A DNA stretch of 64,000 nucleotides from Terriglobia bacterium (GTDB lineage: Bacteria; Acidobacteriota; Terriglobia; Bryobacterales; Bryobacteraceae): contig JAIQFE010000004.1 of the NCBI GenBank assembly GCA_020073445.1, positions 152,523 to 216,522 on the forward strand, in the 5' to 3' direction. The stretch's first letter is position 1. Each line of letters opens with the position of its first letter. Of the stretch, positions 29,169-60,732 are shown piece by piece. The notes below the pieces were generated by a model. It made no database searches, was not told the DNA's origin, and worked only from the letters and a program-made list of their open reading frames with translations. A program made the position numbers and the translations under genes.

Positions 29169-29180
29169 AAATGAGGGCCT

Positions 29181-32929: not shown

Positions 32930-32939
32930 GGGGGATTGA

Positions 32940-39526: not shown

Positions 39527-40281
39527 TGTCAACGGTCGCACAGATTGTCGATTACTACGTCGGCCTTCTCATCATCCAATATCACAACAAACCCAAAGCA
39601 ATGGCGACCATCTCGCTGTTGGTTAACGAGTTCCTTTGCAATGCGATTCTGCTCGACATCCTGAACGGTTACGACATCGAAACCGCCGTGGGCGTACAGC
39701 TCGATGTGATCGGGAAGTATGTCGGCGTAGACCGGTTCTTCAAAGATGTGGATCTGATCGATTTATTCGCGATCCCTGCCTATCTCGATTCGCCCACTTC
39801 GCCTCCGCAGTATGGGTTTGAAACTTATGCGACTTTTGCCACGGACAACGATCTTAACGGTACGCTCACTTACGAAAAGATCATCAGCTCCAACAATCTC
39901 TTGATTGACGAGTTCTACCGGCAAATCATCAAGCTCAAGATCCTTCAGAACACCATCAATCACAGCGATGCCGCTATTGATGCGGCGATGTTCGCCTTTT
40001 TCGGCGGTGATGTCCGGCCGGAAGAGATGTTCAACATGCACATGGCCTACTTCGTCACGGCGAATGAAACGTCGCTAATTCGGGCGGTCCTTGCCAAGAA
40101 TCTTCTGCTGAAGCCGATGGCCGTGGGCGCCGTGGTCGTGAAGGATGTTGAGGGCCTGATGTTCGGATTTGCCGACTATGCCGGGTTCGAAAGCCCCTAT
40201 GCTTATGGCTTCTCAACCTACGCCAATTATGCTAGCTTGCCGGGGCAAGTCCTCTCCTACTCTCAGATCAGCGCGATTTAA
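39526..40281 (+). CDS. DUF2612 baseplate protein (gpI-like)
   Basis: 251 residues with AQIVDYYVGLLIIQYHNKPKAMATISLLVNEFLC, NGYDIETAVGVQLDVIGKYVGVDR, and FRQIIKLKILQNTINHSDAAIDAAMFAFFGG, the DUF2612 pattern. It ends with AYGFSTYANYASLPGQVLSYS. It occupies the gpI place after baseplate J, linking wedge and fibres. Confidence 0.8.
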   Translation: MSTVAQIVDYYVGLLIIQYHNKPKAMATISLLVNEFLCNAILLDILNGYDIETAVGVQLDVIGKYVGVDRFFKDVDLIDLFAIPAYLDSPTSPPQYGFETYATFATDNDLNGTLTYEKIISSNNLLIDEFYRQIIKLKILQNTINHSDAAIDAAMFAFFGGDVRPEEMFNMHMAYFVTANETSLIRAVLAKNLLLKPMAVGAVVVKDVEGLMFGFADYAGFESPYAYGFSTYANYASLPGQVLSYSQISAI

Positions 40282-41516
40282 TGGCACGGCTCACCCGGAA
40301 AACCCTTAAACAGTTTGCAGGATCGGCTGGTGCCGTGGCGCTCGGCGTGGGTGAATTCGGCTCCGCGCAGGCTGGAAGCCCGGCTTTCAGCACCGACCCC
40401 ACGGTTATCCAGAGCTTGGCCGCATGGCTTGGCGGCTGGACCAATGCGACCCTCGGCGCAAGCAAGTTCCCATGCCTTGAAGATATGAACGCGGTGGACT
40501 TCGTTCACAGCTACATGCTGGCCTATCAATTCCAGGAAGGTATTTCTGAATACGATTCGGGCACGACTTACTATGTCGACAGCATCGTCAAGGTTCCGGG
40601 AACGGTCAAACTATACGCATCCCTTACGAATGCGAATCAGGGTAATGCTCTTCCGACGCCTCCGGCGAGCAACGCAAACTGGCAGTATCTTTGCGACCTC
40701 GCGAACATCACGCCTGCCGCTGGTGGGCGCACACTTCTGACTGGAAACACGACGTTTTACATTTCGGCAAGTGGCAATGACGGCAACACGGGTTTGACAG
40801 TTGGCAGTCCCTGGCTAACCCGTCAACACGCTTGGGACACGGTCAAGAACACGTATGACTTGGCCGGATTCAACGTCACCTTTCAGCTTGCGGACGGAAC
40901 CTATACGGACAATTTCGCACCTCAAGGACTGATGGTTGGCCAGTTTTCGCCGGGTCAGGTTGCCTTCAACGGCAACGCGGGCACGCCATCCAATGTACTT
41001 ATCAATGTGAGCGGCGGGGCCGCATGGTCAGCGGTCAGTGCGATGTATCAGGTCCAGAGCAGCAAGTTCCAGAATTCTGGCGGAAATGGAATCTTCTCGC
41101 AGATCAATAGCATTATCAGCATGGGCGCTGGCATGATCGTTGGAGCATGTTCGGGTTCCAAGATTCGTGCGACGACAGGATCGCAGGTCAAAGTCAACAA
41201 CAGCTACACCGACATCGGCAATGCGCAACAGCATTATGAAACGGATACGGCAGGATCAATCATAGATGTTACCGGTGGCATAACCATCACAGAAAGCGGA
41301 ACTCCCGTCTATTCAATTGCGTTTGCTGTGGCCACGGAACTCGCTGAGATCATTTTCCGAAACACCCCAACCAGCGTCCCGACGTTTTCAGGGTCAGCGA
41401 CAGGTGCTTATTATTTGGCCAGCCTCAACGGCGTAATCCAGACTCAGGGCAGTGGTGGTACGTATCTGCCGGGCAATAGTGCTGGATCAACGGCAACCGG
41501 AGGGCAGTATTCGTGA
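40281..41516 (+). CDS. tail fibre or receptor-binding protein, beta-helix-like
   Basis: 411 residues. The N-terminus (ARLTRKTLKQFAGSAGAVALGVGEFGSAQAGSPAFSTDPTVIQSLAAWLGGWTNATLGAS) attaches to the baseplate. The rest is Gly, Asn, Ser and Thr rich with beta-helix-like repeats (TLLTGNTTFYISASGNDGNTGL, NGIFSQINSIISMGAGMIVGACSGSKIRATTGSQVKVNNS). It should bind the host surface. An ATGA-like overlap with the next gene supports the order. Confidence 0.75.
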   Translation: MARLTRKTLKQFAGSAGAVALGVGEFGSAQAGSPAFSTDPTVIQSLAAWLGGWTNATLGASKFPCLEDMNAVDFVHSYMLAYQFQEGISEYDSGTTYYVDSIVKVPGTVKLYASLTNANQGNALPTPPASNANWQYLCDLANITPAAGGRTLLTGNTTFYISASGNDGNTGLTVGSPWLTRQHAWDTVKNTYDLAGFNVTFQLADGTYTDNFAPQGLMVGQFSPGQVAFNGNAGTPSNVLINVSGGAAWSAVSAMYQVQSSKFQNSGGNGIFSQINSIISMGAGMIVGACSGSKIRATTGSQVKVNNSYTDIGNAQQHYETDTAGSIIDVTGGITITESGTPVYSIAFAVATELAEIIFRNTPTSVPTFSGSATGAYYLASLNGVIQTQGSGGTYLPGNSAGSTATGGQYS

Positions 41517-46877: not shown

Positions 46878-46981
46878 CGATAGCTTTCAAACGCGCTGGT
46901 GCGCAGATGATTATCAAACGGCCCCCGAAACGGCCACCTGTCGTTGTGAAGCCGCGCCCGAGGGAATACCGGCGTGGCTGA
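46874..46981 (+). CDS. 35-residue basic peptide
   Basis: A tiny frame whose ATG overlaps the previous stop (ATGA) and whose end overlaps the endolysin start. It is basic and Pro-rich (IIKRPPKRPPVVVKPRPREYRR). The coupling supports it being translated; the role is unknown. Confidence 0.45.
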   Translation: MTIAFKRAGAQMIIKRPPKRPPVVVKPRPREYRRG

Positions 46982-47381
46982 TACGAACCTATCTGATCTC
47001 GACCCGCTACTTCAAACGGTGTACCCGAAATGGGTCGATGGATGCGCAGAGGAATTTGAGCAGCAGGATCTGAATGGCAGCGTCCGAATCATCCAGGGGT
47101 GGAGATCACCGAGCTATCAAGATCACCTCGAATCAACGGGCGTTAGCAAACTGGGCTCCAGCCAGTCGCTGCATTGCTGCACGATAGCGGGGAAGCCAGC
47201 CAGCAGGGCATTTGATTTCGGTGTCTTTGCAGAAGACGGCTCTTATGTGACTGATGGTAACGACCCTCGATATGCTGCCGCCGGGGCAGTAGCAGAGAGT
47301 TTGGGGCTGGTGTGGGGAGGAAGGTTTGTTCATCCTGGGGCCGATCCGGATCATATCCAGCTTCCCGATTCTGAGCAATAA
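46974..47381 (+). CDS. endolysin, M15-family peptidase
   Basis: 135 residues from a GTG overlapping the previous gene. Motifs are VRIIQGWRSPSYQDHL, SLHCCTIAGKPASRAFDFGVF (His and Asp zinc ligands) and LVWGGRF..DPDHIQLP (last His), the VanY/M15 layout seen in T5-type endolysins. It should cleave the L-Ala-D-Glu or D-Ala bond of peptidoglycan after the holin opens the membrane. It ends the structural and lysis operon. Confidence 0.85.
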   Translation: MADTNLSDLDPLLQTVYPKWVDGCAEEFEQQDLNGSVRIIQGWRSPSYQDHLESTGVSKLGSSQSLHCCTIAGKPASRAFDFGVFAEDGSYVTDGNDPRYAAAGAVAESLGLVWGGRFVHPGADPDHIQLPDSEQ

Positions 47382-47672: not shown

Positions 47673-49178
47673 TTATCGTTCCCGGCCCTGTCCTCCCCAC
47701 CTTCTCTCGTTCTCGGCGATCCGGGCCGCTTCCTCGCGCGCCCTATCCGCCTCTTTCCCGGCAAATTCCTTCTGTTTGTCCGCCTGTCTGCCCTCCGCTT
47801 TTTGTTTGGGATCCAGGATGGGCACGAGGATATTCAGCGCGCCTCCAATCATGTCGAGGGTGGCGCCGACCTGCCGCTCTGCGACGCGGCTCAACCGTCC
47901 GGGAATGTCTCGTTCCTTACGGACCGAGGACGGCTTACGGTGATCGTGACCTCGCGACTGTCGCTGCTGGCTGCGCTCCTTAGCGATGATCTCAGGCCGC
48001 ATTTCCATGAACTCGACGGTTTTGGTGAGCGTGGGAACACTGGTCTGGTCGAGAGGCTTCATGTACTCGTTGATAGTTTTGAAAGTCTTCGCTCCCGTGG
48101 TCTCCGGCGTGAGCCGGAAGATCCGCGAACCCTCATCCACGAAGACGTATTCCCCCTCGTAGAGCTTGGGCGAATAACGCCCGGCTTCCTTCGCCGTGGC
48201 ATGGTCTTTGATGCTCTGCGCGGCCTCGTCCTTGCTGACCCTGGCCAGCAAGTACCCCTGATCCCGAAGCGCCTTTCGAAACTCGGCCGGATCAGCTTTC
48301 TTCCCCCACTCATCCCTGATCAATTGCTTGCCATGCTGCCATGGGTTTTCACGCACGCGCGGCTTCGTGCGTGCATCGTTGCGCTCCTGGGTCTCCTCAT
48401 TGATGGCCCTGACGCGCGTCTGAACTCCGTCTCTTTCCATGGCAGTGACTTTAGGTCCTTCATGACGCTGAGGCTCGCGATCAAGCTTGGTTGCCCAGTC
48501 GAAATCCCCTCGCTGAATGGCCTCCTCGCGCTGCCGGTCAAGGGTCATATGCCCAACTCTCCAGCGGTCGGCCTCAGTCTGCAGTTCAGGCTGATTCTGC
48601 TCCCGCGCGGCACGTTCCAGAGCTCTCGCGCCATGATGCGCCCACTTCTCCCGCAGACGCTCAACATCGGCTGGGGTTAGGGTGGGCAACTTGTTGTTTT
48701 CGAACCCGTCTGCTGCTATGGGACGGAGGGACCATAGCATGTGGCAGTGATAATTTCTTTCGTCGCTTTGCTCCGAAGGAGCATGAAAAGCGACGTTAAC
48801 TGCGCGTCCGGTTCCCCTCGTTAAATGTTCCCGGATGAAGTCCGTTACCCACCTCTTGTTCTGCTCCAGAGTCAGCTCATGGGGCAGATTCCCGATGGCG
48901 TCTTGGCACTCCAGCGCATCCCACCGTTTCTCCGCCTTGGACGCTTCGTTCCAGAACCGTTCAGGGTCATTTACCCATGCCGGCGCGTTGCGCTTGGGGT
49001 CCACAAACATCGTTGCCCAGAGCAGCTCTTCATCGTGTTTCTTACTGTAGTCTGCGGTGATTTTTCCGGTTCGCTCGTCGCGATACTTCTCGCGGTTGAT
49101 ATAGGCTGCCTTGGAGACACACCCCGAAGAATTCTTCCTTCCACTTGGCCAGTGAATTTCGAAACGAAACTGGGCCAT
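47673..49178 (-). CDS. MobA/MobL-family relaxase
   Basis: 501 residues. The N-terminal relaxase domain has SKAAYINREKYRDERTGKITADYS (probable catalytic Tyr26), ALECQDAIGNLPHELTLEQN, VNVAFHAPS (His132) and RNYHCHML (His144, His146), the metal site of the MOBQ class. The C-terminal half is helical and charged. Such enzymes nick an origin of transfer and lead the DNA to a recipient. It is unusual inside a prophage. A coupling protein is encoded 7 kb away. An AlpA-like gene lies 11 bp upstream. Confidence 0.85.
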   Translation of the reverse strand: MAQFRFEIHWPSGRKNSSGCVSKAAYINREKYRDERTGKITADYSKKHDEELLWATMFVDPKRNAPAWVNDPERFWNEASKAEKRWDALECQDAIGNLPHELTLEQNKRWVTDFIREHLTRGTGRAVNVAFHAPSEQSDERNYHCHMLWSLRPIAADGFENNKLPTLTPADVERLREKWAHHGARALERAAREQNQPELQTEADRWRVGHMTLDRQREEAIQRGDFDWATKLDREPQRHEGPKVTAMERDGVQTRVRAINEETQERNDARTKPRVRENPWQHGKQLIRDEWGKKADPAEFRKALRDQGYLLARVSKDEAAQSIKDHATAKEAGRYSPKLYEGEYVFVDEGSRIFRLTPETTGAKTFKTINEYMKPLDQTSVPTLTKTVEFMEMRPEIIAKERSQQRQSRGHDHRKPSSVRKERDIPGRLSRVAERQVGATLDMIGGALNILVPILDPKQKAEGRQADKQKEFAGKEADRAREEAARIAENERRWGGQGRER

Positions 49179-49188
49179 CTACTACCTC

Positions 49189-49446
49189 CTATGATCTAGA
49201 ACGTCCCCATAAGGCCCGGACGCAGGACACGGCCACCTTATGTTGCTTTTCCTGTTCGCTGAGAAGCTCAGGTCGCTGAGCCTCGTAGGATTCTATGTCG
49301 CGAAGTCGCCAGAGATTGCCTCGGTTTCGTGGCCGTTTCACCACAGGTTGCGGAAATTCAGGATCACGCTTGCGCAGCTTCCGGACACCCTCACGCGTGT
49401 AAACCCAGCGCTCCAAGATGTCGGGTAGGGTGATGCGTTCTTCCAT
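49189..49446 (-). CDS. AlpA-like small HTH regulator
   Basis: 85 residues from ATG 49446: EERITLPDILERWVYTREGVRKLRKRDPEFPQPVVKRPRNRGNLWRLRDIESYE. The helix-turn plus winged FPQPV and LWRLRDIESY pattern is that of AlpA/excisionase-type regulators. An earlier in-frame start at 49542 would be longer but has no support. It ends 11 bp before the relaxase and may regulate it. Confidence 0.65.
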   Translation of the reverse strand: MEERITLPDILERWVYTREGVRKLRKRDPEFPQPVVKRPRNRGNLWRLRDIESYEAQRPELLSEQEKQHKVAVSCVRALWGRSRS

Positions 49447-49568
49447 CGGATCGTCCTGAATTAACCATGCCGGATGGCAGGAGGATTGACACTGCAGAAA
49501 CAATGGCTTACAAGATTCGACCGTGTTGGCCTCTGCCAACACATTAACTGCGCTTTTACCTCCGCACT

Positions 49569-50156
49569 ATGTTTGTGGAAGACCTTGATCTTGTTCATAG
49601 AAACGATATCGAATTCGATGTCTTCGATTACCACTGCCTTGATTTGCTGGGTGAACGGTTCGGTGCTTTCACAGTTGTTCACCAGACCATAGACACCACT
49701 GGAGCGGCCTACAGCCTCCGTTGCTCTTGCGGCGTATCGCTCCTCCAGTCAATAGAAAACCTCCATGAACAACGGCTTTGGCGATGCGAGTTTTGCGAAA
49801 GGAATGCCGAATTCGCACTCCAGAAGGCGCTTAGAAGGAGCCTGAAAAAGCTTCGAGTGGGAAGGGTTCGGATACTGGGCATACTGCGCGGTGCGATACA
49901 GCGATGCCACAATCCCGACTGCGATGCCTACGGAAACTATGGCGCTCGGGGAATAGAAGTTTGCGAAGAATGGCGTCAGGACCCGTATAGCTTTTACCTC
50001 TGGTCCTTGGGAAATGGATACGAGGATCACCTCACGCTGGACAGAAGAGATAATTATTCCGGTTACGAACCGACCAACTGCCGGTGGATTACGAATGCTG
50101 AGAACCAAAGGAATAGACGTGTTCATCAAGACCGCCGCGGAGGTACGCCTGCTTAG
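49569..50156 (+). CDS. HNH-type homing-endonuclease-like protein
   Basis: 195 residues. CSCGVSLLQSIENLHEQRLWRCEFC gives four zinc cysteines. The second half (RILGILRGAIQRCHNPDCDAYGNYGARGIEVCEEWRQDPYSFYLWSLGNGYEDHLTLDRRDNYSGYEPTNCRWITNAENQRNRRV) is the AP2/HNH-like pattern of phage freestanding homing endonucleases (NPxCxxYxxYGxRGI, LDRRDNxxGYEPxNCRW). It interrupts two minus-strand operons. It may be a selfish gene between relaxase and small-gene clusters. Confidence 0.7.
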   Translation: MFVEDLDLVHRNDIEFDVFDYHCLDLLGERFGAFTVVHQTIDTTGAAYSLRCSCGVSLLQSIENLHEQRLWRCEFCERNAEFALQKALRRSLKKLRVGRVRILGILRGAIQRCHNPDCDAYGNYGARGIEVCEEWRQDPYSFYLWSLGNGYEDHLTLDRRDNYSGYEPTNCRWITNAENQRNRRVHQDRRGGTPA

Positions 50157-50211
50157 ATGACTCCGGGACCTCCGCCGAAGTTGCAGCCGTGGGCAAAACC
50201 CTCGCTGGCAT

Positions 50212-50490
50212 TCACGGATGCGGCGCCAGCGCTTTTAGTCGGACTGGCCTGATTGGTACGGGGTCGGCTTCGAACACGCTGGGCGGTCCCTGTAAGCAGA
50301 AAGTCCGGCCGTCTATGGTGACTTTCTCGCCATGAAGGAATCCATTTCGGTCGTCAGGTTCTCCTCCGCTGAAGTGCTTCGGATCAACCAAACGGTACGC
50401 CTCAAGCTCGGCAGCGCCGGTGCTGTCTATCGCGATTGTTGTGAAAGCGAAAAGACTATTGCCCCATTCGAATGGCGGACCTAAGAGCAT
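50212..50490 (-). CDS. hypothetical small protein, end of the small-gene operon
   Basis: 92 residues from ATG 50490, overlapping the upstream gene by ten bases (earlier in-frame starts up to 50592 exist). FEWGNSLFAFTTIAIDSTGAAELEAYRLVDPKHF is followed by KVTIDGRTFCLQGPPSVFE. It is beta-rich and unrecognised. Confidence 0.5.
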   Translation of the reverse strand: MLLGPPFEWGNSLFAFTTIAIDSTGAAELEAYRLVDPKHFSGGEPDDRNGFLHGEKVTIDGRTFCLQGPPSVFEADPVPIRPVRLKALAPHP

Positions 50491-50660
50491 TCCAGCAACG
50501 CCTCCCGCATTCGCTCCAGGGCTCTCCTGACGCCCTTCCAATCCCTGAAGCCAATGGCTATCTCCAGCTCTGGAATCGCCTCCCTGAGGCACTGGCGAAG
50601 GGTGATGGCTGCTACAACGTCCTTGACGATCAGGGCTCGGCGTTCGGGTGTTTCGGTCAT
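50481..50660 (-). CDS. hypothetical small helical protein
   Basis: 59 residues from ATG 50660, overlapping the upstream stop (ATGA). ERRALIVKDVVAAITLRQCLREAIPELEIAIGFRDWKGVRRALERMREALL is all helical with regular hydrophobic spacing. It is unrecognised. Confidence 0.55.
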   Translation of the reverse strand: MTETPERRALIVKDVVAAITLRQCLREAIPELEIAIGFRDWKGVRRALERMREALLECS

Positions 50661-50983
50661 GGCAGTAAGTCGAAAAGCGTCGGCTCGGTTGGCTCTGCGT
50701 TTTGGGCAGAAAGGCTCTTCAATATTCGTGCCGCCAGCGTTTCCAAATGGTCTGAATAGTACACAGCACAGTACTCCCGTGACGCCCCAATCATGGCGCA
50801 GGTCTCGTCCCAGCGTTTGCCGTTCCAAACGAAAAACTCATGATTGCCGCCATCGCGTTCGAAAGCTTGCCGAGGAGTTTCCGCGCCGGTCTCAAGCGCG
50901 TAAGCCAGATAGTATGGGTTCCACTCTTCTCCGGCAAGTTCTTCCAGCCTTTGGCCGGGTGATTTATGAGGGCTCTTGCTCAT
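50657..50983 (-). CDS. hypothetical small protein
   Basis: 108 residues: SPGQRLEELAGEEWNPYYLAYALETGAETPRQAFERDGGNHEFFVWNGKRWDE, then YYSDHLETLAARILKSL, ending TLFDLLP. It is common in phages as a conserved gene of unknown function. It overlaps both neighbours by four bases. Confidence 0.6.
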   Translation of the reverse strand: MSKSPHKSPGQRLEELAGEEWNPYYLAYALETGAETPRQAFERDGGNHEFFVWNGKRWDETCAMIGASREYCAVYYSDHLETLAARILKSLSAQNAEPTEPTLFDLLP

Positions 50984-51150
50984 CTGACCACCAGCGACAG
51001 CAGAAAAGCTCCCACAACACCACCGCAGAAACCGACCGCAATGCCCATGGCAAAGCCGTGCTCCCAGATGTAACTGAATATTTGAAAAGCGTCCTCAGCG
51101 TTATCGATCATCGCGTCGAGTTCTTTCTCGTTTGGCATTAGGACTTTCAT
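50980..51150 (-). CDS. 56-residue membrane protein
   Basis: Found by its ribosome site (AAGGAG) and start at 51150. It has an acidic helix (NEKELDAMIDNAEDAFQIFSYIWEHG) and one transmembrane helix (AMGIAVGFCGGVVGAFLLSLVV). The stop overlaps the next start. The role is unknown. Confidence 0.55.
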   Translation of the reverse strand: MKVLMPNEKELDAMIDNAEDAFQIFSYIWEHGFAMGIAVGFCGGVVGAFLLSLVVR

Positions 51151-51169
51151 TCGGTGCTCCTTGGTTAAT

Positions 51170-51194
51170 GCGGTTCAAGCTCGTCTTGAACCGC
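51170..51194. repeat. perfect 10-bp inverted repeat in a 210-bp gene-free gap
   Basis: GCGGTTCAAG (51170-51179) and CTTGAACCGC (51185-51194) with a 5-base centre lie in the only sizeable gap (51151-51360) of an otherwise gapless minus-strand gene run. A GCTGC-GGTA-GCAGC hairpin (51344-51357) lies at the other end. There is no T-run, so it could be an operator or a transfer origin arm rather than a terminator. Confidence 0.45.
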
Positions 51195-51360
51195 TGCCAA
51201 GCGGCGAGCGCGGGAGGCAAGCGGAAAGGGACTTCTCGGGAGACCGTCAAAAGCAACGGCGTCTTCGCGTCAGCGAAACGGCGTCTGTCTTTTTACGGCG
51301 GAAGGCCCCTTGTAGCGCGCCAGGGCGGCAGCCCTTAGCAACTGCTGCGGTAGCAGCGCG

Positions 51361-51687
51361 TCAGGCTTCCTCGACACTCTCGACGTAACTTTCATCAGCA
51401 TTGCCAGAAGAGGAATAGGACCAATCGAGATTGTCGTGGTCCATTTGGTTGGCGAGAGCTTCGGCCTCCTCTTGCGAGTATGCCTCGATGATCTCTGTGG
51501 CCCTCTCTTCAGTCGTTGCCGTGCGGTAAAACCTGACCTTGTATTCTTTCTTTTCGGTTCCGGCAGGGAGGCCAAAAGTCGGCTCGAACTTCCTCAGAAT
51601 GTTGGATGCGGTTGGAACACCAGACTCCATCGCTTTGCGGAATTCATCAGGTGGAACCCTGCCAAACGACGGATGCTTGTCGCTCAT
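51361..51687 (-). CDS. hypothetical protein
   Basis: 108 residues: GRVPPDEFRKAMESGVPTASNILRKFEP, then EYKVRFYRTATTEERATEIIEAYSQEEAEALANQMDHDNLDWSY with an acidic tail. The middle resembles beta-alpha units of phage proteins related to plasmid DUF domains. It overlaps the upstream stop by four bases. Confidence 0.55.
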   Translation of the reverse strand: MSDKHPSFGRVPPDEFRKAMESGVPTASNILRKFEPTFGLPAGTEKKEYKVRFYRTATTEERATEIIEAYSQEEAEALANQMDHDNLDWSYSSSGNADESYVESVEEA

Positions 51688-52037
51688 GGCTGCTTTTTCT
51701 CCGCGAAATCAATCGACGGATTGAACCAATCGTCTTTGATGATGTGGCCGATAGCGTGAACTTTGCTCCAACTCGACTTCGCTCGAATTGTGCGGCCTGC
51801 TAGCAATTTCCATTCATCCACTCCTGCGATTTCCATTACGCGAAAGATGAAATGCCCGGCGTACCCAAGGTTGGGTTTATGGTGCAGCCAAGAGCGCGGC
51901 AGATAAAGCGCATAGCCGCCGAAACCCTGACCAGATCCTCCGTAGTCGAGTGTGATGTATGAGGTGAGGAGGCCGCGTTCAGAAGTGGTGAGCGATGCAC
52001 TTTCGATCACAGCGTTCTTAATCTCGACTTCGTCCAT
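51684..52037 (-). CDS. hypothetical phage protein
   Basis: 117 residues. IKNAVIESASLTTSERGLLTSYITLDYGGSGQGFGGYALYLPRSWLHH and FIFRVMEIAGVDEWKLLAGRTIRAKSSWSKVHAIGHIIKDDWFNP are recognisable as a conserved phage family of unknown function (the GGSGQGFGGYALY block is widespread). Its start is 14 bp after the upstream gene. Confidence 0.65.
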   Translation of the reverse strand: MDEVEIKNAVIESASLTTSERGLLTSYITLDYGGSGQGFGGYALYLPRSWLHHKPNLGYAGHFIFRVMEIAGVDEWKLLAGRTIRAKSSWSKVHAIGHIIKDDWFNPSIDFAEKKQP

Positions 52038-52051
52038 CTCGCTCTCCGTGG

Positions 52052-52582
52052 TTAGGGTCCAAATAAACTGAGCTGCTCGACTTCGGGCTGTGCCGCTGGC
52101 CGATCCGGAATACCTAAACGCTTCTCCAGTAGCGCGATCATCCGCTCCGCCTTGCGCTTATTGGATTCGGTCTCGACGGGCCAATCGCGGATGCGCTGGT
52201 ATTCAGTGATCAGGCGCACAACTCCGGCATCAATCGCCTCCTGTTTGTCCATGTAGGCGACCCGGTTCCATAGAGAGGGGCCACTCATTCCACCGGAAGT
52301 CGCGCTGTGATAATCGACCCCTACGGCGTGCCAACCTTTGCGCGACGTCGCTATGCGAACTGTCGCGTGCCATTGCCGTTCCTTGCCCAGCCTGAACTCT
52401 ACGGTTTCATCGTCATTGAACGCGCCGTTCTCGTTACAGTCGCCGCCGCCCCAGAGTTGAAGAAGCGCCCGGTGCGCTCCTTCGGAGCGATGGGAATCGG
52501 GATAACGCCGCTGGATCTGTCGGATGATGCGCGACAGGTCGATGGCGCTCCCTCTCTCACCAATTTCGACCGGGTCGCCCAT
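52052..52582 (-). CDS. hypothetical protein with C-terminal beta-clamp-binding motif
   Basis: 176 residues from ATG 52582. AIDLSRIIRQIQRRYPDSHRSEGAHRALLQLWGGGD is followed by RLGKERQWHATVRIATSRKGWHAVGVDYHS and a helical region. The last residues EVEQLSLFGP contain QLSLF, which matches the bacterial sliding-clamp-binding consensus. It may attach to the replication clamp. The motif is short, so this could be chance. Confidence 0.6.
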   Translation of the reverse strand: MGDPVEIGERGSAIDLSRIIRQIQRRYPDSHRSEGAHRALLQLWGGGDCNENGAFNDDETVEFRLGKERQWHATVRIATSRKGWHAVGVDYHSATSGGMSGPSLWNRVAYMDKQEAIDAGVVRLITEYQRIRDWPVETESNKRKAERMIALLEKRLGIPDRPAAQPEVEQLSLFGP

Positions 52583-52589
52583 CCGCCCC

Positions 52590-52754
52590 TCACTGCGGTG
52601 GGTAGGTTGGATTAACGGCATCCTGCAATTCGGTGACCCCCCAGATTGCCAAGACCACGACAAGGGCCAACAGGAAGCCGATGACAAACAGCTCTTTCAA
52701 GCTAAGTTCCGCAGGTGTTGGGCTGTGGGAGTTTAATCGGAAAAGCCAGTTCAT
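52590..52754 (-). CDS. 54-residue membrane protein
   Basis: The ATG at 52754 overlaps the stop of the upstream gene (ATGA). It has one transmembrane helix (LFVIGFLLALVVVLAIWGV) after SPTPAELSLKE and a short polar tail. The role is unknown. Confidence 0.6.
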   Translation of the reverse strand: MNWLFRLNSHSPTPAELSLKELFVIGFLLALVVVLAIWGVTELQDAVNPTYPPQ

Positions 52755-53089
52755 GCATCACCTCGGGCCTTGGCGATTGCTATGCGGGCGGCTTTGATCG
52801 TTTCATCGTCTTCCGAAATGTACAATTTCAGTTCAGCAGAGCTAGTCATATCCGCGACCAGATTTTCCAAGGCTTCCAGCAACTCCGCATGGCTGTTGAC
52901 GGCGCGGACGATCAGGGCGGCGTTGGCCTCGCAGACTGCGTCCGGCTGCTTTTCTGAAGGACCACCGGCAGCAAGTCCGAAGACCAATTCGCCGTTGGCT
53001 CCGGTAATCTGGCTGAATCCCATTGAGGGCGGCTCGATGAGCCACGGCGTTGGCGTATGCACGGGAGGGCTTTTGTTTTGGTCGGTCAT
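52751..53089 (-). CDS. hypothetical phage protein (HTPTPW family)
   Basis: 112 residues. HTPTPWLIEP, SQITGANGELVFGLAAG, AVCEANAALIVRAVNSHAELLEALENLVADM and a helical C-terminus form the small conserved phage protein seen in many siphoviruses and myoviruses. Its role is unknown. It overlaps both neighbours by four bases. Confidence 0.72.
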   Translation of the reverse strand: MTDQNKSPPVHTPTPWLIEPPSMGFSQITGANGELVFGLAAGGPSEKQPDAVCEANAALIVRAVNSHAELLEALENLVADMTSSAELKLYISEDDETIKAARIAIAKARGDA

Positions 53090-53334
53090 GGCAACCTCCG
53101 ATTACATGAAGGGCAAACCTTAGGTTCTCGGCAGTTCTCCCATATAATCACGTCGGGACCGTTGCCCTTCCTCGGACGATAGCCGCAATCGGTGATGCAA
53201 TCGCACGGCTTCGTTTCGTCATAGCTTGCCAAGCCACAATTCACGCATCTGAATAGTGTCGGGTCGTCTTCCAGCATCCTGTCACTCTCAATCTTTCGCA
53301 TCGTTTCATCATTGCTGTGCGCTAGTTTGCTCAT
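53086..53334 (-). CDS. small zinc-binding protein
   Basis: 82 residues with eight cysteines: CVNCGLASYDETKPCDCITDC, and CREPKVCPSCNRRL at the end. The arrangement suggests a zinc ribbon or two. Such genes are common in phage early regions; the role is unknown. Confidence 0.6.
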   Translation of the reverse strand: MSKLAHSNDETMRKIESDRMLEDDPTLFRCVNCGLASYDETKPCDCITDCGYRPRKGNGPDVIIWENCREPKVCPSCNRRLP

Positions 53335-53504
53335 GAGTCCTCCAATTCGGGGTCAAGCTTGCCATCTTCGGTCAGGTGTTTCTCGGCGCAAGTCCCGCAG
53401 ACAAACTCGTAAACTTTGGTGGAATTGACCTTGGGAACGTCCCATGCTCCATCCCCGTCAGTATCGGCAAAGTCTCCGCAATAGCTGCATGGTAAGTAGC
53501 TCAT
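53331..53504 (-). CDS. small zinc-binding protein
   Basis: 57 residues from ATG 53504. CSYCGDFADTDGDG then FVCGTCAEKHL gives a four-Cys zinc site. It overlaps the upstream stop (ATGA). Longer in-frame starts exist but lie inside the upstream gene. Confidence 0.6.
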   Translation of the reverse strand: MSYLPCSYCGDFADTDGDGAWDVPKVNSTKVYEFVCGTCAEKHLTEDGKLDPELEDS

Positions 53505-53734
53505 ACTGCCTCGCTGGGTTTCGATGGCTGCGGATGCCAGAGTGTCGGCGGCGCATCCTTTGTAAATCCTGACCATCGATCCTGCTCTGGAAGGTAGCGA
53601 GAAAGTGTTGGTTCCATGCCGGGCTTCCAGACAAAAACCCACTGAGGAACATGCGCTTCCCGCGTGCTGTCCTTGCCAGACTTGATCGTCTTGGTCATGC
53701 CCTTCGGGGCTGTTCCGATTTCCTGCCAGCTCAT
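53501..53734 (-). CDS. hypothetical DUF551-like small protein
   Basis: 77 residues: SWQEIGTAPKGMTK, then EAHVPQWVFVWKPGMEPTLSRYLPEQDRWSGFTKDAPPTLWHPQPSKP. The W..I..AP and TLWHPQP pattern resembles DUF551-type phage proteins, as does the gene at 24749. The function is unknown. Confidence 0.6.
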   Translation of the reverse strand: MSWQEIGTAPKGMTKTIKSGKDSTREAHVPQWVFVWKPGMEPTLSRYLPEQDRWSGFTKDAPPTLWHPQPSKPSEAV

Positions 53735-53889
53735 GCTCCAACTCCGTATTGGCTATTGTCTTGGACGTACTGCTCCCGGTATGCGCTGAGAATGTCGAGT
53801 GCATCGGCAACTTCCGTGGCCTTGGTGTCTTGAAAAACAATCGTCAGGACTTCCATCGCCAAGTCGAGTTTCTTGAGTACGTCGCTCAT
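53731..53889 (-). CDS. 52-residue helical protein
   Basis: It starts at ATG 53889, coupled to the upstream stop. The sequence is nearly all helix (DVLKKLDLAMEVLTIVFQD, EVADALDILSAYREQYVQ). It is unrecognised. Confidence 0.55.
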   Translation of the reverse strand: MSDVLKKLDLAMEVLTIVFQDTKATEVADALDILSAYREQYVQDNSQYGVGA

Positions 53890-54068
53890 ATCGTTTCTCT
53901 CCGTTTCTGAATATCCGCCAGCTCTGCATCGGCTAGGGACTGGATTTCTAGGAAGGCTCTCGCAAACGTGCTTGCAGCGTATTGATCTTCTATAGCCATG
54001 CGCGCCCATGCCGCACTGCACCACGCCTTGGCGGCGATGTTCATCAAGGTTTGCTCGGTGGTGGTCAT
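53886..54068 (-). CDS. 60-residue helical protein
   Basis: TTTEQTLMNIAAKAWCSAAWARMAIEDQYAASTFARAFLEIQSLADAELADIQKRRE is a Trp- and Ala-rich helical peptide. It is coupled to both neighbours by ATGA overlaps. It is unrecognised. Confidence 0.55.
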   Translation of the reverse strand: MTTTEQTLMNIAAKAWCSAAWARMAIEDQYAASTFARAFLEIQSLADAELADIQKRRETI

Positions 54069-54415
54069 GGCGCGTTCTCCAATCCCATTGCGATCTTGTC
54101 CAAATCTTCTGAGACGCGCCGCACACGCTTCGCAACGTCTTTGATCTTGACCGGGCAGTCCTCAAGGCGGCGGAGATTGATGGAATTGCATAGGGCACAA
54201 ATGCCAACCGGGCCGTGCGGTGGCGCAGTCAAAATGATCTCGACCGCATCTTTCAATAGACCGGGCACACGCCGCGCCGCATCTTCCATGCTGACGCAAT
54301 AAACGATGCAGCCATTGCAGACTTCTTGCTCGCATTTCCCATCGGCATGACGGACCGAAAGCCTAACCGAATTCGCTACCGTGTGATTGTGTTCTTTAGT
54401 TCCGGTCGCCATCAT
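54065..54415 (-). CDS. hypothetical zinc-binding protein
   Basis: 116 residues (a second ATG at 54412). CEQEVCNGCIVYC and CALCNSINL give several cysteines; the rest is helical (AKRVRRVSEDLDKIAMGL). It overlaps the upstream gene by about 20 bases. The function is unknown. Confidence 0.55.
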   Translation of the reverse strand: MMATGTKEHNHTVANSVRLSVRHADGKCEQEVCNGCIVYCVSMEDAARRVPGLLKDAVEIILTAPPHGPVGICALCNSINLRRLEDCPVKIKDVAKRVRRVSEDLDKIAMGLENAP

Positions 54416-54602
54416 CGCTCCTCATCTTTTCGTAAAGCGCATCGGCTGCGCGTTCATCTTCCTCGGCTGTCAGCTCGACGCCCTTCGGTTCGTACACTTC
54501 GACGGTTTCAAGCTCGCCATCTTCAAACTTTCCTGTGACGATAATCTCGATATCGCCGTGATCGCTCTCGCGGTAGATTTTAGCTTCGTATTCGCGGGAC
54601 AT
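54396..54602 (-). CDS. hypothetical small protein
   Basis: 68 residues with a GGAG ribosome site: SREYEAKIYRESDHGDIEIIVTGKFEDGELETVEVYEPKGVELTAEEDERAADALYEKM. It has an acidic beta-alpha layout and resembles small phage proteins of unknown role. It lies just after the pentapeptide gene. Confidence 0.6.
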   Translation of the reverse strand: MSREYEAKIYRESDHGDIEIIVTGKFEDGELETVEVYEPKGVELTAEEDERAADALYEKMRSDDGDRN

Positions 54603-54611
54603 TGGAGGCTC

Positions 54612-55565
54612 CTATGCTGCTTTGCGGATGTGGTCGCGCATCATTATGGCTTCGTCCAGCCATTCGAGTGCGATTTTGGCGGCTTGGTTCGTTTCTGGCG
54701 TGTCGCCCGGCTTGATTTGCATGAACCATTGCTCGCGGGGACTGCTGGCATCCGCCACATAGCAGATGCCATTTATCTGGATATCGCTGCCATCATAATC
54801 GTCTTCAAGATCGTCCTTGTAGTACGCTTTTGCCAGAGTCCCTGCCAAGCAAGCACAGTCGCCGGAGTAGGTTGAACCATCAATCTTCCCGGCGACGATT
54901 GTTGACCGCAGGGCTTCCAGTTCATTAGGCAGCTTCAAAACTTCGGCGATGAAGTCTTGCTTGAATTGCGCGAGATTCGCGCCACGGAGGTACGCGTCAC
55001 TGAGGTCCGCGCCACTGAGGTCCGCGTCACTGAGGTCCGCGCCACTGAGGTCCGCGTCACTGAGGTTCGCGCCACTGAGGTCCGCGCCACTGAGGTCCGC
55101 GCCACGGAGGTACGCGCCACTGAGGTCCGCGTCACTGAGGTCCGCGCCACTGAGGTTCGCGTCACTGAGGTTCGCGCCACGGAGGTACGCGTCACTGAGG
55201 TTCGCGTCACTGAGGTTCGCGCCACGGAGGTACGCGTCACTGAGGTTCGCGTCACTGAGGTTCGCGTCACTGAGGTCCGCGCCACTGAGGTCCGCGTCAC
55301 TGAGGTCCGCGCCACGGAGGTTCGCGCCACTGAGGTCCGCGCCACGGAGGTACGCGCCACTGAGGTCCGCGTCACTGAGGTCCGCGCCACGGAGGTTCGC
55401 GTCACTGAGGTTCGCGCCACTGAGGTACGCGCCACTGAGGTCCGCGCCATTCTTTACCGCCAACTCCAACGCGAGTTTGCACTGAAGGATTTCCTCGGTA
55501 CCGTCCGGGATTTCTTGGGTGTAGATGACCTCGGCGGTGAAGCGGGATTTGAATTCGAATCTCAT
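54612..55565 (-). CDS. pentapeptide-repeat protein
   Basis: 317 residues from ATG 55565 (GGAGG upstream). The N-terminal part ([36 protein letters not shown]) is a small domain. Then 32 consecutive pentapeptides of the A(D/N/Y)L(S/R)(D/G) type run from ADLSG to ANLAQ. The C-terminal part ([30 protein letters not shown]..., [10 protein letters not shown]) is a separate domain found in phage proteins. Pentapeptide repeats fold as right-handed beta helices that can mimic DNA, for example against gyrase or restriction enzymes. It is first in the minus-strand small-gene operon; its function is an open inference. Confidence 0.82.
54975..55450. repeat. tandem array of about 32 near-identical 15-bp units
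   Basis: The unit is roughly cactgaggtycgcgc on the plus strand, with changes limited to a few positions that switch Asp/Asn/Tyr, Ser/Arg and Asp/Gly in the pentapeptides. The high DNA identity keeps long frames open on both strands, which are artefacts. The array encodes the pentapeptide region of the gene at 54612. Confidence 0.9.
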
Positions 55566-55673
55566 GGGTGCCTCCGTTGTTTCAGTCCAAGCACCATAGC
55601 CGCTAGGCATGGGCGTGTCAACACCTGATTTGATGCTGACGCAAAAGAAATATCTTGCATACCCGGTAGGTCC

Positions 55674-55874
55674 GTGGCAGACTACCGCGCTATGAATGAG
55701 GAACTCAGAAAGTACATGCGCGAAAACGGCTCGAAGGGCGGGAAAGCCCGTGCCGAAAACCTTGACGCTGCCGAGCTAACCCGCATCGGACGCAAGGGCG
55801 CACAGGCCATGTGGAAGAAACGCCGCGCAAAACCTGTCAAGAGCAAAGTTGCCAAAAATGCAAAGACAGCATAG
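55674..55874 (+). CDS. small basic KGG-like protein
   Basis: 66 residues from a GTG preceded by GGTAGG, or 60 from ATG 55692. [47 protein letters not shown] is a basic, SKGGKA-containing protein of a type common near transfer genes. It is first in the plus-strand operon to the coupling protein. CGGTAG...CTACCG arms flank its GTG start and might regulate it. Confidence 0.6.
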
Positions 55875-56044
55875 CTTCGCACGGGGTCCGCTCGAAATCC
55901 AGCAGTCCCAATCAGTTACCCTTACCGCTAAACTCACCCCTGCATTGATGGAAGTTCTCTTCTTGAATTGAGGAAAGTTCTTCTTTACCAATAGGGTTGC
56001 GAAATCCTGCCTTACTATAGCTGTGCGTAGCACAGGAGGAAATG

Positions 56045-56365
56045 ATGGAAGAGAAGAAACCGAAAGCAACCCTAGGGGCCATGCTCCACAAAATCTGGAA
56101 TGAGGTTGCTCGTGCCGAGCAGAAATGGCGTGCCGAACAAACCCGGCGTGACCGCGAAATCAACCGCCTATGGGGTGTCATGCAGGCTGCGTTCGGTGGT
56201 GCGCTCTACAAGCTGCTGATGGATCATCCAAGCCTCACAGATGATGACAAGAAATTCATCACAGCGATGAAGAACGTCGGCGTTGAAAAGAAGTTCGAAA
56301 AGAAAGCGCCGGAGAAGCTGTCCCCGTCCGAAATCCAAAGGAAAGCGACGGCCTCGAATGTATGA
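56045..56365 (+). CDS. hypothetical protein before the coupling protein
   Basis: 106 residues from the second ATG (56045), which has GGAGG at the right distance; another ATG is at 56042. It is helical and basic (KATLGAMLHKIWNEVARAEQKWRAEQTRRDREINRLWGVMQAAFGG), and its stop overlaps the virD4-like start (ATGA). It may be an accessory of the coupling protein. Confidence 0.65.
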   Translation: MEEKKPKATLGAMLHKIWNEVARAEQKWRAEQTRRDREINRLWGVMQAAFGGALYKLLMDHPSLTDDDKKFITAMKNVGVEKKFEKKAPEKLSPSEIQRKATASNV

Positions 56366-57978
56366 TCTTCGACGCCGTCTGCAAAGGGTTATACTGGCTA
56401 ATCCTGGGTGTCTTTGGGGCGATCCTTCTGGGGTTCGTCGGTGTGATCAGTTTCTTCGCTGGCCCATTTGGAATTGCAATATGGGGCTTCGTCGGATTCT
56501 GTATCAAGCTTTACATCGAGGGTAATAAAGAAACAGAGCGTTGGCAGAAAAAGCAACGTGAACAAGCCAACACTTTCAATCCTGTTCCCATTCATCTATC
56601 GGCCCACTTCGCAACCGATGCAGAGTTAGAGGCCGCTGGATGTTTCAGGGGTGGAATTCCTCTCGGCTATTCGCAGGAATCAGGCCGCGAAATATCCACT
56701 CCTCAAGCAGTTCACCGGAGCACGTTTGGATCGACTGGCTCCGGAAAAAGCACGACCGCAATCATCAATGAAATCCTCACGGCTGGCGACGAAGTAAGCC
56801 TTATAATCCCCGACAGCACCGGGGAGATAACGGCCACAACGGCTGACTATCGGGCGCAAGTTAGCAACACGGTCATCGTCAATCCGCAAGGCGTCTTCCT
56901 CGACGAATTGGGTGATCTGCCGCAGGGAGGGTTCAATATCCTGTCCCCTAAGTGGATTGATCCCAATGATGAATATAACTTCGCTATCCGCGCTCAGAAG
57001 GCAGCCAATGCAATCGTGCGTCGTGATCCGAATTTACGTGATCCCTATTGGGCCGATACGTGTCGCCAGTTGACAACAAACGCCATTATGACGGAGTGCC
57101 AGTACTCGCCAAATCCAAGTATTGTGAATGTCGCCAACGTCATGCTTCGGGATATCACCGGCTACGCCAGAGACATGATGAACACGGGCGATCCTTGGCT
57201 TGTAAAACTCTGGGGCCGATGGGGCAGACCGGGCGCGGAAGAAATCAAATCCCTGAATGAAGTACAGGAGAATGCTCGTACAGAGTTCTGGCCTTATACG
57301 ATGATCCCTCCGGTCGCTGAATGCCTCTCGAAAGACGATATAGATTTTCGGGAAGCCGTTTATAGACCGATGACGATTTACATCGTCGGCAAGATGGAAA
57401 CGGTGAAAGAAACGGGACGCTTATTACGTCTCGCTACAGCGCACGCGACAGCGCAAATTATGAGCGTGGCCGGTCAAGGACGACTGAGAGCAAAACTGAT
57501 TATAGATGAGCTATTTCAGATTGGGCAGATTGACGATCTGGACTCAAACCTAGCTGCAAATCGCAAGTATGGGCTTGATCTGTTTTTGTGTCTCAACGAC
57601 CACCAACAGTTGAAAGACCTGTTCCCGCAGACGTTTGACTCCGTAATCAATTCCTGTGGTATCCGGCAATGGATCAATGCGCCTGACCCAACCACTAGCG
57701 AGTATCTGAGTTCGCTCTGTGGAGAGCGGGAAGTTATTACTATCAGCCGAACAGTGAACGATAACCAAGGCAAGCTTGGTGTTGGTGACGGCAAGCAAGT
57801 TTCTACACGTCGGCTGATATTACCACATGAGGTCCGAAGCCTTGGGCCACGGGAACAAATTCTCTGGGTTCCCGGCGTGCTGAATCCTGTTCGCTGCAAC
57901 CGAAAAGCGTATTTCGACATTCCAGAGTTATGCCAAAGAGCAAAACCAAATCCATTCTATTCACGAAAGAGAGCCTAA
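56362..57978 (+). CDS. VirD4/TraG-type coupling protein (T4CP)
   Basis: 538 residues. Two N-terminal transmembrane helices (LYWLILGVFGAILLGFVGVIS, AIWGFVGFCIKLYI) are followed by a P-loop ATPase with Walker A GSTGSGKST (123-131), IIPDSTGEIT, and Walker B KLIIDELFQIGQ (Asp382-Glu383), then GLDLFLCLNDHQQLK and LPHEVRSLGPREQILW. This is a coupling ATPase that brings a relaxase-bound strand to a conjugation channel. It fits the MobA/MobL relaxase at 47673. No VirB-type channel genes are in the window. It starts with a 4-base overlap. Confidence 0.87.
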   Translation: MIFDAVCKGLYWLILGVFGAILLGFVGVISFFAGPFGIAIWGFVGFCIKLYIEGNKETERWQKKQREQANTFNPVPIHLSAHFATDAELEAAGCFRGGIPLGYSQESGREISTPQAVHRSTFGSTGSGKSTTAIINEILTAGDEVSLIIPDSTGEITATTADYRAQVSNTVIVNPQGVFLDELGDLPQGGFNILSPKWIDPNDEYNFAIRAQKAANAIVRRDPNLRDPYWADTCRQLTTNAIMTECQYSPNPSIVNVANVMLRDITGYARDMMNTGDPWLVKLWGRWGRPGAEEIKSLNEVQENARTEFWPYTMIPPVAECLSKDDIDFREAVYRPMTIYIVGKMETVKETGRLLRLATAHATAQIMSVAGQGRLRAKLIIDELFQIGQIDDLDSNLAANRKYGLDLFLCLNDHQQLKDLFPQTFDSVINSCGIRQWINAPDPTTSEYLSSLCGEREVITISRTVNDNQGKLGVGDGKQVSTRRLILPHEVRSLGPREQILWVPGVLNPVRCNRKAYFDIPELCQRAKPNPFYSRKRA

Positions 57979-59086: not shown

Positions 59087-59290
59087 ATGAATGATGAGCA
59101 TTGGGTGCCTTCAAGGCTGGAATTCCCAGAGGCGGATCACGGTCAGAGTTCGAACCCTCCACTGCTCAAGGGGCATGTTCAACAAATGTCGCCCGGAGAA
59201 ATCTTGGAGTACCACAGAAACAACGGATCGCTGAACGATACGATTCGGAACTACTGTGGGATTTTCCCGGATCGTGGAAGGGATAGATAG
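59087..59290 (+). CDS. hypothetical protein before the excisionase
   Basis: 67 residues from ATG 59087 with a GGAGG site: MNDEHWVPSRLEFPEADHGQSSNPPLLKGHVQQMSPGEILEYHRNNGSLNDTIRNYCGI. Its stop shares one base with the excisionase GTG. It is unrecognised. Confidence 0.6.
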   Translation: MNDEHWVPSRLEFPEADHGQSSNPPLLKGHVQQMSPGEILEYHRNNGSLNDTIRNYCGIFPDRGRDR

Positions 59291-59505
59291 TGTCCGAGTT
59301 GCTAACAGTCGCGGAGGTTGCAGCAGTGTTGCACTGCTCGAAGGCACACGTTTGTAACCTCGTGGGCGGCCGGGTGAGGGACTGCCGGCCGATCCCTGCC
59401 ATTCGTATGGGTCGGCGGATGTTGATCCGGAGGGAAGCACTTCAAGCGTGGATTGCGGCAAACGAAAATGATAGTCTGCCGTTCCCGGAACGAAAAAGGG
59501 CATAG
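59290..59505 (+). CDS. xis: excisionase (recombination directionality factor), MerR-type HTH
   Basis: 71 residues from a GTG: LLTVAEVAAVLHCSKAHVCNLVGGRV, then IPAIRMGRRMLIRREALQAWIA. This is the helix-turn-helix plus wing of small excisionases (HTH_17). Its place directly before the integrase supports an excisionase role; without it the integrase would mainly integrate. Confidence 0.82.
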   Translation: MSELLTVAEVAAVLHCSKAHVCNLVGGRVRDCRPIPAIRMGRRMLIRREALQAWIAANENDSLPFPERKRA

Positions 59506-59507
59506 GC

Positions 59508-60557
59508 ATGGCGGGTGGTGTTCGCAAACAACGTGGTCGTTGGTATGGCCTATGGCACGAAAACGGCATCAAAAAAAGCAAGGTCCTAGGCCTGTGCTCG
59601 GAGATGACGAAGACAGCCGCTCGGGATGCCGTGGCTGAAATCGTCAGAGATGTCCGGGCCAACGCCAACACCGCTCTGTTTGGACCTTTCGTCGAGGGGC
59701 CGTTCTACAACTTTTACGAGCGCAAGTGGAAAGGTTCGACGAAAAGTACGAATGAAAACCGCATGGATGTTCATCTTGTCAAGCGGTTCCGTGACTGCTC
59801 GCTAGAAACATTCCGGCGAGAGCAGTTACAAGACTTTCTGGATGAAAAGGCTAAAACGCTGTCGTACTCGATGGTCACTCATTTGCGCTGGGACTTGCGG
59901 CAGATATTTGCAATGGCACAAGCAGAAGGTCTCGTTCGACGCAATCCGGCACAGTTGCTATTCACGCCCAAGAAGGCGGCGGAGAAGGTTGCAATGGTCC
60001 TAACTGCGGCGCAAATCCAGAGGGTCATTGGATGCCTAGCTCCAAGGGAAGCCTTGATAACTGAGCTGGCGATCTTCGCGGGAATGCGGCCTGGGGAGAT
60101 TTTTGCGCTGCGTCGGGCGAACGTTGCTGACCAATGGGTAGAGGTGAGGGAGCGCGTGTATCAAGGGGTACTGGACAGCCCGAAGTCTGAACGCGGATTC
60201 AGGAAGGTAGCATTACCGGGAAGGGCATGTGAGCACCTGCATGAATGGTTGAAGGGGGTTGCCCCGCAGTCTCAAGCTTTTGTATTCGCATCCGAACGTG
60301 CAACCCCCTTATCAAAGAACAATATTTGGCGGCGCAACATGCTCCCGCATTTGAAGGAAGAAGGGTTGGCGTGGGCGAATTTCCAGGCGATGCGCAGGAC
60401 GTTCATCACGCTGGGCAAGATCGCTGGAGGGGACCCGAAGGTTTTGGCGGATCAGGCCGGACATGATATCGGCGTATCCGTAGCGGTCTACACGCAAAGC
60501 CCTATCGAGAGCAAACTGAAAGCTGTAAACGCGCTTGAAAAGCTCGTGTTGGGCTAA
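59508..60557 (+). CDS. int: tyrosine site-specific integrase
   Basis: 349 residues. The N-terminal arm-binding part (RGRWYGLWHENGIKKSKVLG) precedes a core-binding domain and the catalytic domain: AGMRPGEIFALR (Arg194), an LDSPKSERGFRKVAL lysine region, AMRRTFIT (Arg296), AGHDIGVS (His319) and the nucleophile VYTQ (Tyr328). The usual His of the HxxR box is Gln293, a common variation. It recombines attP with the tRNA-Arg attB next to it. Its 3' end is 100 bp from attR. Confidence 0.93.
   Translation: MAGGVRKQRGRWYGLWHENGIKKSKVLGLCSEMTKTAARDAVAEIVRDVRANANTALFGPFVEGPFYNFYERKWKGSTKSTNENRMDVHLVKRFRDCSLETFRREQLQDFLDEKAKTLSYSMVTHLRWDLRQIFAMAQAEGLVRRNPAQLLFTPKKAAEKVAMVLTAAQIQRVIGCLAPREALITELAIFAGMRPGEIFALRRANVADQWVEVRERVYQGVLDSPKSERGFRKVALPGRACEHLHEWLKGVAPQSQAFVFASERATPLSKNNIWRRNMLPHLKEEGLAWANFQAMRRTFITLGKIAGGDPKVLADQAGHDIGVSVAVYTQSPIESKLKAVNALEKLVLG

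Positions 60558-60653: not shown

Positions 60654-60732
<79 letters not shown>

What the first reader, a model, noticed from the sequence alone, without database searches (positions are those of the whole stretch)
47673..57978. Relaxase and VirD4-type coupling protein inside a complete contractile-tail prophage
A MobA/MobL relaxase (His132, His144, His146, Tyr26) and a T4CP (GSTGSGKST, Walker B Asp382-Glu383) lie within the attL-attR limits together with full head, tail and lysis modules. No mating-pair genes are seen. The element could move in two ways: as a virion or by mobilisation through a helper conjugation channel. ArdC, typical of conjugative elements, supports this. Prophages carrying both a relaxase and its own coupling ATPase are, to my knowledge, unusual.
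Basis: partly seen in the sequence, partly recalled or inferred. Interest (0 to 1): 0.85.

Follow-up and report, generated by a model that had tools for sequence, protein, structure and literature searches.

The report
Prophage carrying a conjugation kit
A dormant virus in a bacterial chromosome carries, beside its head and tail genes, a gene for a DNA-nicking relaxase, a gene for the pump that feeds DNA into mating channels, and a likely transfer origin, so it is predicted to be able to spread both as virus particles and by bacterial mating through another element's channel.

Summary
A 50.3-kb prophage lies in tRNA-Arg between 48-bp repeats (10366-10413, 60654-60701). It carries an uninterrupted MobA/MobL relaxase gene, an uninterrupted VirD4-type coupling-protein (T4CP) gene, and a contractile-tail morphogenesis block colinear with Bdellovibrio phage phi1422. 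Three additions. (2) The pair looks acquired: 0 of 20 structural relatives in IMG/VR carry either gene, including one 46.5-kb record with repeated ends and 18 shared genes (many others are fragments). (3) An unrelated second case: a 40-kb phage-plasmid with repeated ends (Rep3, P22-like coat) has relaxase, T4CP, ArdC and an oriT motif. The host genome holds a VirB-type channel cluster on another contig. Best reading: a temperate phage with an acquired mobilisation module that brings its own T4CP and would use a helper channel. Nicking, transfer and virion production are untested. Precedents: conjugative prophage Phi1207.3 (mechanism open) and IMEs with their own T4CP.

The parts
10366..10413 (.). 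attL, 48-bp copy of the tRNA-Arg 3' part
   Evidence: direct repeat with 60654-60701, 96%
10563..12005 (-). Thoeris pair carried by the prophage: ThsB TIR (10563-11120) and ThsA macro-domain (11121-12005)
   Evidence: PF08937 E 8.7e-15, PF20016 E 4.5e-45
14736..15719 (-). ArdC-like anti-restriction gene
   Evidence: ArdcN E 2e-34, MPTase-PolyVal E 3.2e-48; phrog_7245
21284..41516 (+). contractile-tail morphogenesis block (TerL, portal, head, protease, major head protein, sheath, baseplate)
   Evidence: PHROGs; colinear with phi1422 and IMG/VR relatives
46974..47381 (+). endolysin
   Evidence: phrog_465 E 5.3e-8
47673..49178 (-). MobA/MobL (MOBQ-like) relaxase, 501 aa
   Evidence: PF03389 over cut-off; catalytic residues invariant; profile matches 4ht4 and 2ns6
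49189..49542 (-). small DNA-binding (HTH-type) gene directly upstream of the relaxase; possible relaxosome accessory or regulator (inference); the true start may be internal
   Evidence: phrog_4745 DNA binding protein, E 3.3e-5
49523..49557 (+). candidate oriT: 8-bp perfect inverted repeat, 4-nt loop, 2-nt spacer, MOBQ-like core
   Evidence: DNA hairpin z -4.57, 0 of 200 shuffles fold as well
56362..57978 (+). VirD4-type coupling protein (T4CP), 538 aa, likely N-terminal membrane anchor
59290..59505 (+). excisionase-like HTH gene
   Evidence: PF12728 E 2.6e-9, phrog_66 E 1.2e-4
59508..60557 (+). tyrosine integrase
   Evidence: PF00589 E 2.2e-11, phrog_1
60654..60701 (.). attR, inside tRNA-Arg(tct) 60656-60732(-)

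Best explanation
This is a 50-kb contractile-tail prophage integrated in a tRNA-Arg gene that carries a MobA/MobL relaxase gene, a VirD4-type coupling-protein gene and a likely oriT, and it is predicted to move in two ways: as a virion, and by conjugation through another element's mating channel. Predicted course: integrase and the excisionase-like protein excise a circle at the att repeats; the relaxase, perhaps helped by the HTH protein encoded beside it, nicks the core next to the hairpin at 49523-49557 and stays attached through Tyr26; the element's own T4CP docks this complex on a helper VirB-type channel in place of the helper's T4CP; the strand enters the recipient, is recircularised and reintegrates; ArdC may blunt restriction on arrival. 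Shown: gene content, uninterrupted frames, catalytic residues, T4CP fold match, att repeats, motif statistics, a channel gene cluster elsewhere in the genome. Inferred: excision, nicking, docking, transfer, virion production.
Against: The pair is absent from 20 of 20 structural relatives, so it is not a conserved phage trait. Relaxase is under NCBIfam's MobQ cut-off (118 of 200 bits). Relaxase and T4CP are 7.2 kb apart. No repressor or replication gene recognised. The C60 cluster has its own T4CP and its compatibility is unknown. No transfer, nicking or induction data.
Confidence: 0.6

Rival explanations
1. An integrative mobilisable element (IME) that absorbed a phage block: the unit that spreads is the IME (integrase, relaxase, T4CP, oriT, Thoeris, ArdC) and the phage genes no longer yield infectious virions.
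For: No replication, repressor or holin gene recognised; the published P1-related trend is loss of virion genes when relaxase or oriT is gained (PMC10879196, PMC12977533, passages).
Against: Morphogenesis frames are uninterrupted and colinear with phi1422 and G258. No second integrase was found with three recombinase queries; only the known one matched well.
Confidence: 0.16
2. Relaxase and T4CP are independent, recently inserted passengers on the way to decay, without function in the prophage.
For: Absent from 20 of 20 structural relatives; not in one operon; GC differs (relaxase 58.4%, T4CP 50.6%, structural block 54.9%).
Against: Both frames uninterrupted with catalytic residues kept; candidate oriT next to the relaxase; the same pair in an unrelated phage-plasmid.
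Confidence: 0.12
3. The genes serve another purpose: the relaxase starts rolling-circle replication of the phage, and the T4CP interferes with a resident conjugative element by displacing its coupling protein.
For: No replication initiator was recognised in the element (ORFs scanned). PMC5704250 (passages) proposes that a coupling protein brought by an IME replaces the helper's.
Against: The relaxase profile matches conjugative and mobilisation nickases and the site has the MOBQ oriT layout.
Confidence: 0.09

Closest known systems
Conjugative prophage Phi1207.3 of Streptococcus pyogenes (PMC4260502; abstract and passages)
   Same: Prophage with phage structural and lysis genes that moves by a process fitting the definition of conjugation
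   Different: The words relaxase, coupling, mobili- and oriT do not occur in that text, and it leaves the mechanism open; this element has a relaxase, T4CP and candidate oriT but no transfer data
IMEs and mobilisable plasmids with their own VirD4 protein (PMC5704250; passages)
   Same: Relaxase plus own coupling protein, no channel; predicted use of a helper channel
   Different: Those described there pair VirD4 with MobC relaxases; here the relaxase is MOBQ-like and the carrier has a phage morphogenesis block
P1-like phage-plasmids and derived plasmids with relaxase or oriT (PMC10879196, PMC12977533; passages)
   Same: Phage-derived elements with conjugation functions
   Different: [quoted passage not shown] here the morphogenesis block is uninterrupted and the element is chromosomal
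IMGVR_UViG_2928031308_000001 (G277), 40-kb phage-plasmid
   Same: Virion genes, ArdC, MobA/MobL relaxase, T4CP, oriT motif upstream of the relaxase
   Different: P22-like coat, Rep3 plasmid replication, serine recombinase; pair only distantly related (37% over 141 and 23% over 377 residues) and the two genes are adjacent and divergent
Bdellovibrio phage phi1422
   Same: 16 colinear morphogenesis genes; portal 50%, major head protein 53% identical
   Different: Not among the records with a relaxase or T4CP match

Membership tests
MobA/MobL (MOBQ-type) relaxase | Pfam MobA_MobL profile over its cut-off | tested here: met
   103.8 bits, cut-off 26.7
MobA/MobL (MOBQ-type) relaxase | Catalytic Tyr and three-His metal site | tested here: met
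   Tyr26, His132, His144, His146, invariant in 6 sequences
MobA/MobL (MOBQ-type) relaxase | NCBIfam MobQ equivalog NF041496 cut-off | tested here: not met
   118.3 bits against 200; hence 'MOBQ-like', not MobQ proper
MobA/MobL (MOBQ-type) relaxase | oriT with hairpin followed by TAAGTGCGC-type core | tested here: inconclusive
   One site, 3 mismatches, 8-bp stem; 14 of 1000 shuffles have one
VirD4/TrwB-type coupling protein | T4SS-DNA_transf and TrwB_AAD_bind profiles, Walker A and B | tested here: met
VirD4/TrwB-type coupling protein | TrwB-like fold | tested here: met
   [not shown]
Temperate contractile-tail phage | TerL, portal, major head protein, sheath, baseplate, endolysin in uninterrupted frames | tested here: met
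Temperate contractile-tail phage | att repeats with integrase | tested here: met
Temperate contractile-tail phage | Recognisable repressor and replication genes | tested here: inconclusive
   None recognised among the ORFs scanned
Temperate contractile-tail phage | Inducible infectious virions | not testable with these tools
   needs experiment
Integrative and mobilisable element (IME) | Integrase plus own relaxase, no channel genes | tested here: met
   no channel gene recognised among ORFs scanned
Integrative and mobilisable element (IME) | Mobilised by a helper | not testable with these tools
   candidate helper cluster only
ICE (self-conjugative element) | Own mating-channel genes | tested here: not met
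   VirB4 profile PF03135 hits only contig C60 in the genome; none recognised in the element among ORFs scanned

The most novel reading that the evidence does not exclude
A dual-route class of temperate phages: unrelated phages (an integrating contractile-tail prophage and a P22-like phage-plasmid) have each adopted an oriT-relaxase-T4CP kit together with ArdC, so that one genome is both a virus and a self-equipped passenger on other elements' mating channels, free of receptor limits and of lysis.
Probability: 0.35. Interest if true: 0.9.

Novelty: new variant of a known kind. Interest (0 to 1): 0.72.

Why it matters
Phages and conjugative elements are usually treated as separate routes, and the P1-related elements with oriT that are in print have lost virion genes. 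A prophage with both an uninterrupted virion block and a nick-and-deliver kit would let a phage genome enter cells that lack its receptor, without lysing the donor. It would also give a concrete, testable mechanism for 'conjugative prophages' such as Phi1207.3, whose mechanism was left open; the oriT candidate turns the question into a nicking assay on about 50 bases.

Tried and rejected
Only-T4CP claim: a PF02534 search of the genome suggested that the prophage T4CP is the only one; reading contig C60 showed a divergent T4CP there (TraG-D_C E 4e-8), so the claim was dropped. MOBQ core alone: 13 matches against 15 expected, no evidence by itself. A GTGCGCCCTT match at 55794-55806(-) lies in a small ORF with no inverted repeat found near it; dropped. 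Scans for close relatives of the window pair: viral-contig searches confirmed none, one search gave G277 and G278; genome contigs (T4CP; portal) confirmed none. Portal: no other hit in 257 genomes of the order at E 1e-40 nor in 396 of the phylum at E 1e-60. T4CP profile in the order: 9 of 257 genomes at E 1e-30, the window's own included; in the stretches fetched around 6 of the other 8 no structural gene of this prophage matched. G278 (82 kb, MobA relaxase, phage genes, no T4CP hit) reads as an IS-rich contig joining plasmid-type and phage genes and is not counted as a second case. Synechococcus phage Ssp-JY41 has a MobA-like gene, but its annotation names plasmid partition and replication genes and no virion gene. 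MT839752 matches both genes but is 4,050 bases long. Looser-stem background: 127 of 1000 shuffles; hits in 6 of 65 loci without a known MobA/MobL gene, of which L055 and L062 are one phage, L073 and L091 one record, and L094 is from G278, which does hold a relaxase.
Full report
OBSERVATION. The window is G000:C65:152523-216522 of a 6.58-Mb, 102-contig assembly. Two 48-bp repeats, 96% identical, start 50,288 bp apart at 10366 and 60654; the right one is inside a tRNA-Arg(tct) gene, beside a tyrosine integrase and an excisionase-like HTH gene. Between the repeats PHROGs find terminase large subunit, portal, head morphogenesis, protease, major head protein, tail sheath, baseplate hub and wedge and an endolysin. 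No mating-channel gene was recognised in the element among the ORFs scanned (not every small ORF was). No repressor, replication initiator or holin was recognised, so 'complete' is shown for morphogenesis and endolysin only.

CANDIDATE oriT. Upstream of the HTH-relaxase pair lies a perfect 8-bp inverted repeat with a 4-nt loop (49523-49542), 2 nt, and a 13-mer matching the MOBQ core at 10 positions (49545-49557). The core alone is not above chance (13 found, 15 expected). Core plus 8-bp hairpin occurs once in the window; 2 of 300 shuffles and 14 of 1000 have at least one; the limits were set after I had seen the site. With a 6-bp stem, 127 of 1000 shuffles have one. As DNA the stretch folds with z -4.57, 0 of 200 shuffles as stable. 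Positive control, 6-bp stem: a site in 6 of 17 MobA/MobL loci of the same order (51,825 bases; loci, some of them fragments of genes), and none in contig C60. In the 6 it lies 5' of the relaxase on the opposite strand; checked by open frames for 5, taken from the match strand for the sixth. The window's site obeys the same rule. In 65 loci without a known MobA/MobL gene (883,936 bases, partly overlapping) 6 loci gave a hit. Published consensus sequences (PMC3832669, PMC10333310; passages) keep the GCGC core found here. The dyad could instead be an operator for the HTH protein.

RELATED PHAGES. Of 50 genes compared with phi1422 (the repetitive pentapeptide gene, the 51st, left out), 17 match at E 1e-3: 16 colinear morphogenesis genes and Sak4. 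A scan of IMG/VR with a portal alignment gave 21 loci, one of them phi1422 itself (L062, left out). Of the other 20 records 0 had a MobA_MobL relaxase and 0 a T4CP. Many are short, so absence there is weak; but G258 (46,495 b) has a 90-bp terminal repeat, which I read as a complete circle, and shares 18 genes without the pair. So the pair was probably gained in this lineage. In 50,697 phage records tblastn found the relaxase in 6 and the T4CP in 5; only MT839752 (4 kb) has both. Other relaxase families were not searched in phages.

A SECOND, UNRELATED CASE. G277 (IMGVR_UViG_2928031308_000001, 40,229 b, 95-bp terminal repeat) encodes, by Pfam, a Rep3 initiator, P22-like coat, small terminase, a protein with a weak ParB-N match, serine recombinase, M15 peptidase (endolysin) and ArdC; by PHROGs, large terminase, scaffold, head-tail adaptor and DNA-ejection proteins. 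It has a MobA/MobL relaxase (E 3.6e-55) and a T4CP (E 2.8e-50), divergently transcribed. With the 6-bp stem (not with 8 bp) the oriT motif appears once, 19583-19613 on the minus strand, 22 bases before the relaxase frame at 19635. Its pair is distant from the window's (37% over 141, 23% over 377 residues), so the two cases look independent. A scan with its T4CP returned only itself.

HELPER CHANNEL. Contig C60 of the same genome holds TrbC/VirB2, VirB4, CagX/VirB9, TrbI/VirB10, TrbL/VirB6 and VirB8 genes, and VirB11-type, T4CP (TraG-D_C E 4e-8) and ArdC genes. In the genome no PF03432 or PF08751 relaxase was found, and MobA_MobL only in the prophage; other relaxase families were not searched. 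Whether the cluster works or is compatible is unknown.

LITERATURE. Phi1207.3 transfers by a process fitting the definition of conjugation, mechanism left open (PMC4260502, abstract and passages); [quoted passage not shown] Mobilisable plasmids and two IMEs with their own VirD4 carry MobC relaxases (PMC5704250, passages). [quoted passage not shown] two P1-related oriT-bearing elements lack virion proteins (PMC12977533, passages). Seven text searches (listings, often capped) showed me no described prophage with relaxase, own T4CP and virion block; I judged by titles, abstract starts and the cited passages, and most subscription papers are not held.

HOST. No call names the host. An ADOP-type permease fragment in the window suggests Acidobacteriota (recalled association, inference).

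VERDICT. The sequence supports a temperate phage with an acquired mobilisation module that includes its own coupling protein. Dual transfer is predicted, not shown.

Noticed in passing
window 10563-12005 (-): Thoeris defence pair (ThsB TIR, ThsA with macro domain) sits just inside attL of the prophage.
   Followed up: no
window 54612-55610 (-): Long pentapeptide-repeat protein in a 15-bp-period repeat array (31 register copies; PF00805 E 4.4e-80).
   Followed up: no
window 49569-50156 (+): HNH endonuclease gene between the candidate oriT and the rest of the leftward gene block (phrog_374 E 1.2e-36).
   Followed up: no
L080, L081, L092 (IMGVR_UViG_2928031308_000001): Phage-plasmid with Rep3, P22-like coat, relaxase, T4CP, ArdC and a 95-bp terminal repeat; its T4CP has a hydrophobic stretch near the C-terminus instead of the N-terminus by eye.
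   Followed up: partly
G000 contig C60 7574-23099 (L047, L048, L054): VirB-type channel cluster with a divergent T4CP and an ArdC gene 40% identical to the prophage's; no relaxase of three families found in the genome apart from the prophage's.
   Followed up: partly
P0009 (window relaxase) against P0010: Relaxase mosaic: C-terminal half 89.4% identical, N-terminal nicking half 36.2%.
   Followed up: partly
window 61157-62185 (+): ORF that looks like an IS110-type transposase just outside attR (by eye; no family search made).
   Followed up: no
L004, L082, L093-L096 (IMGVR_UViG_2718218029_000001): 82-kb low-GC contig joining a MobA relaxase, many insertion sequences and phage structural genes.
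   Followed up: partly
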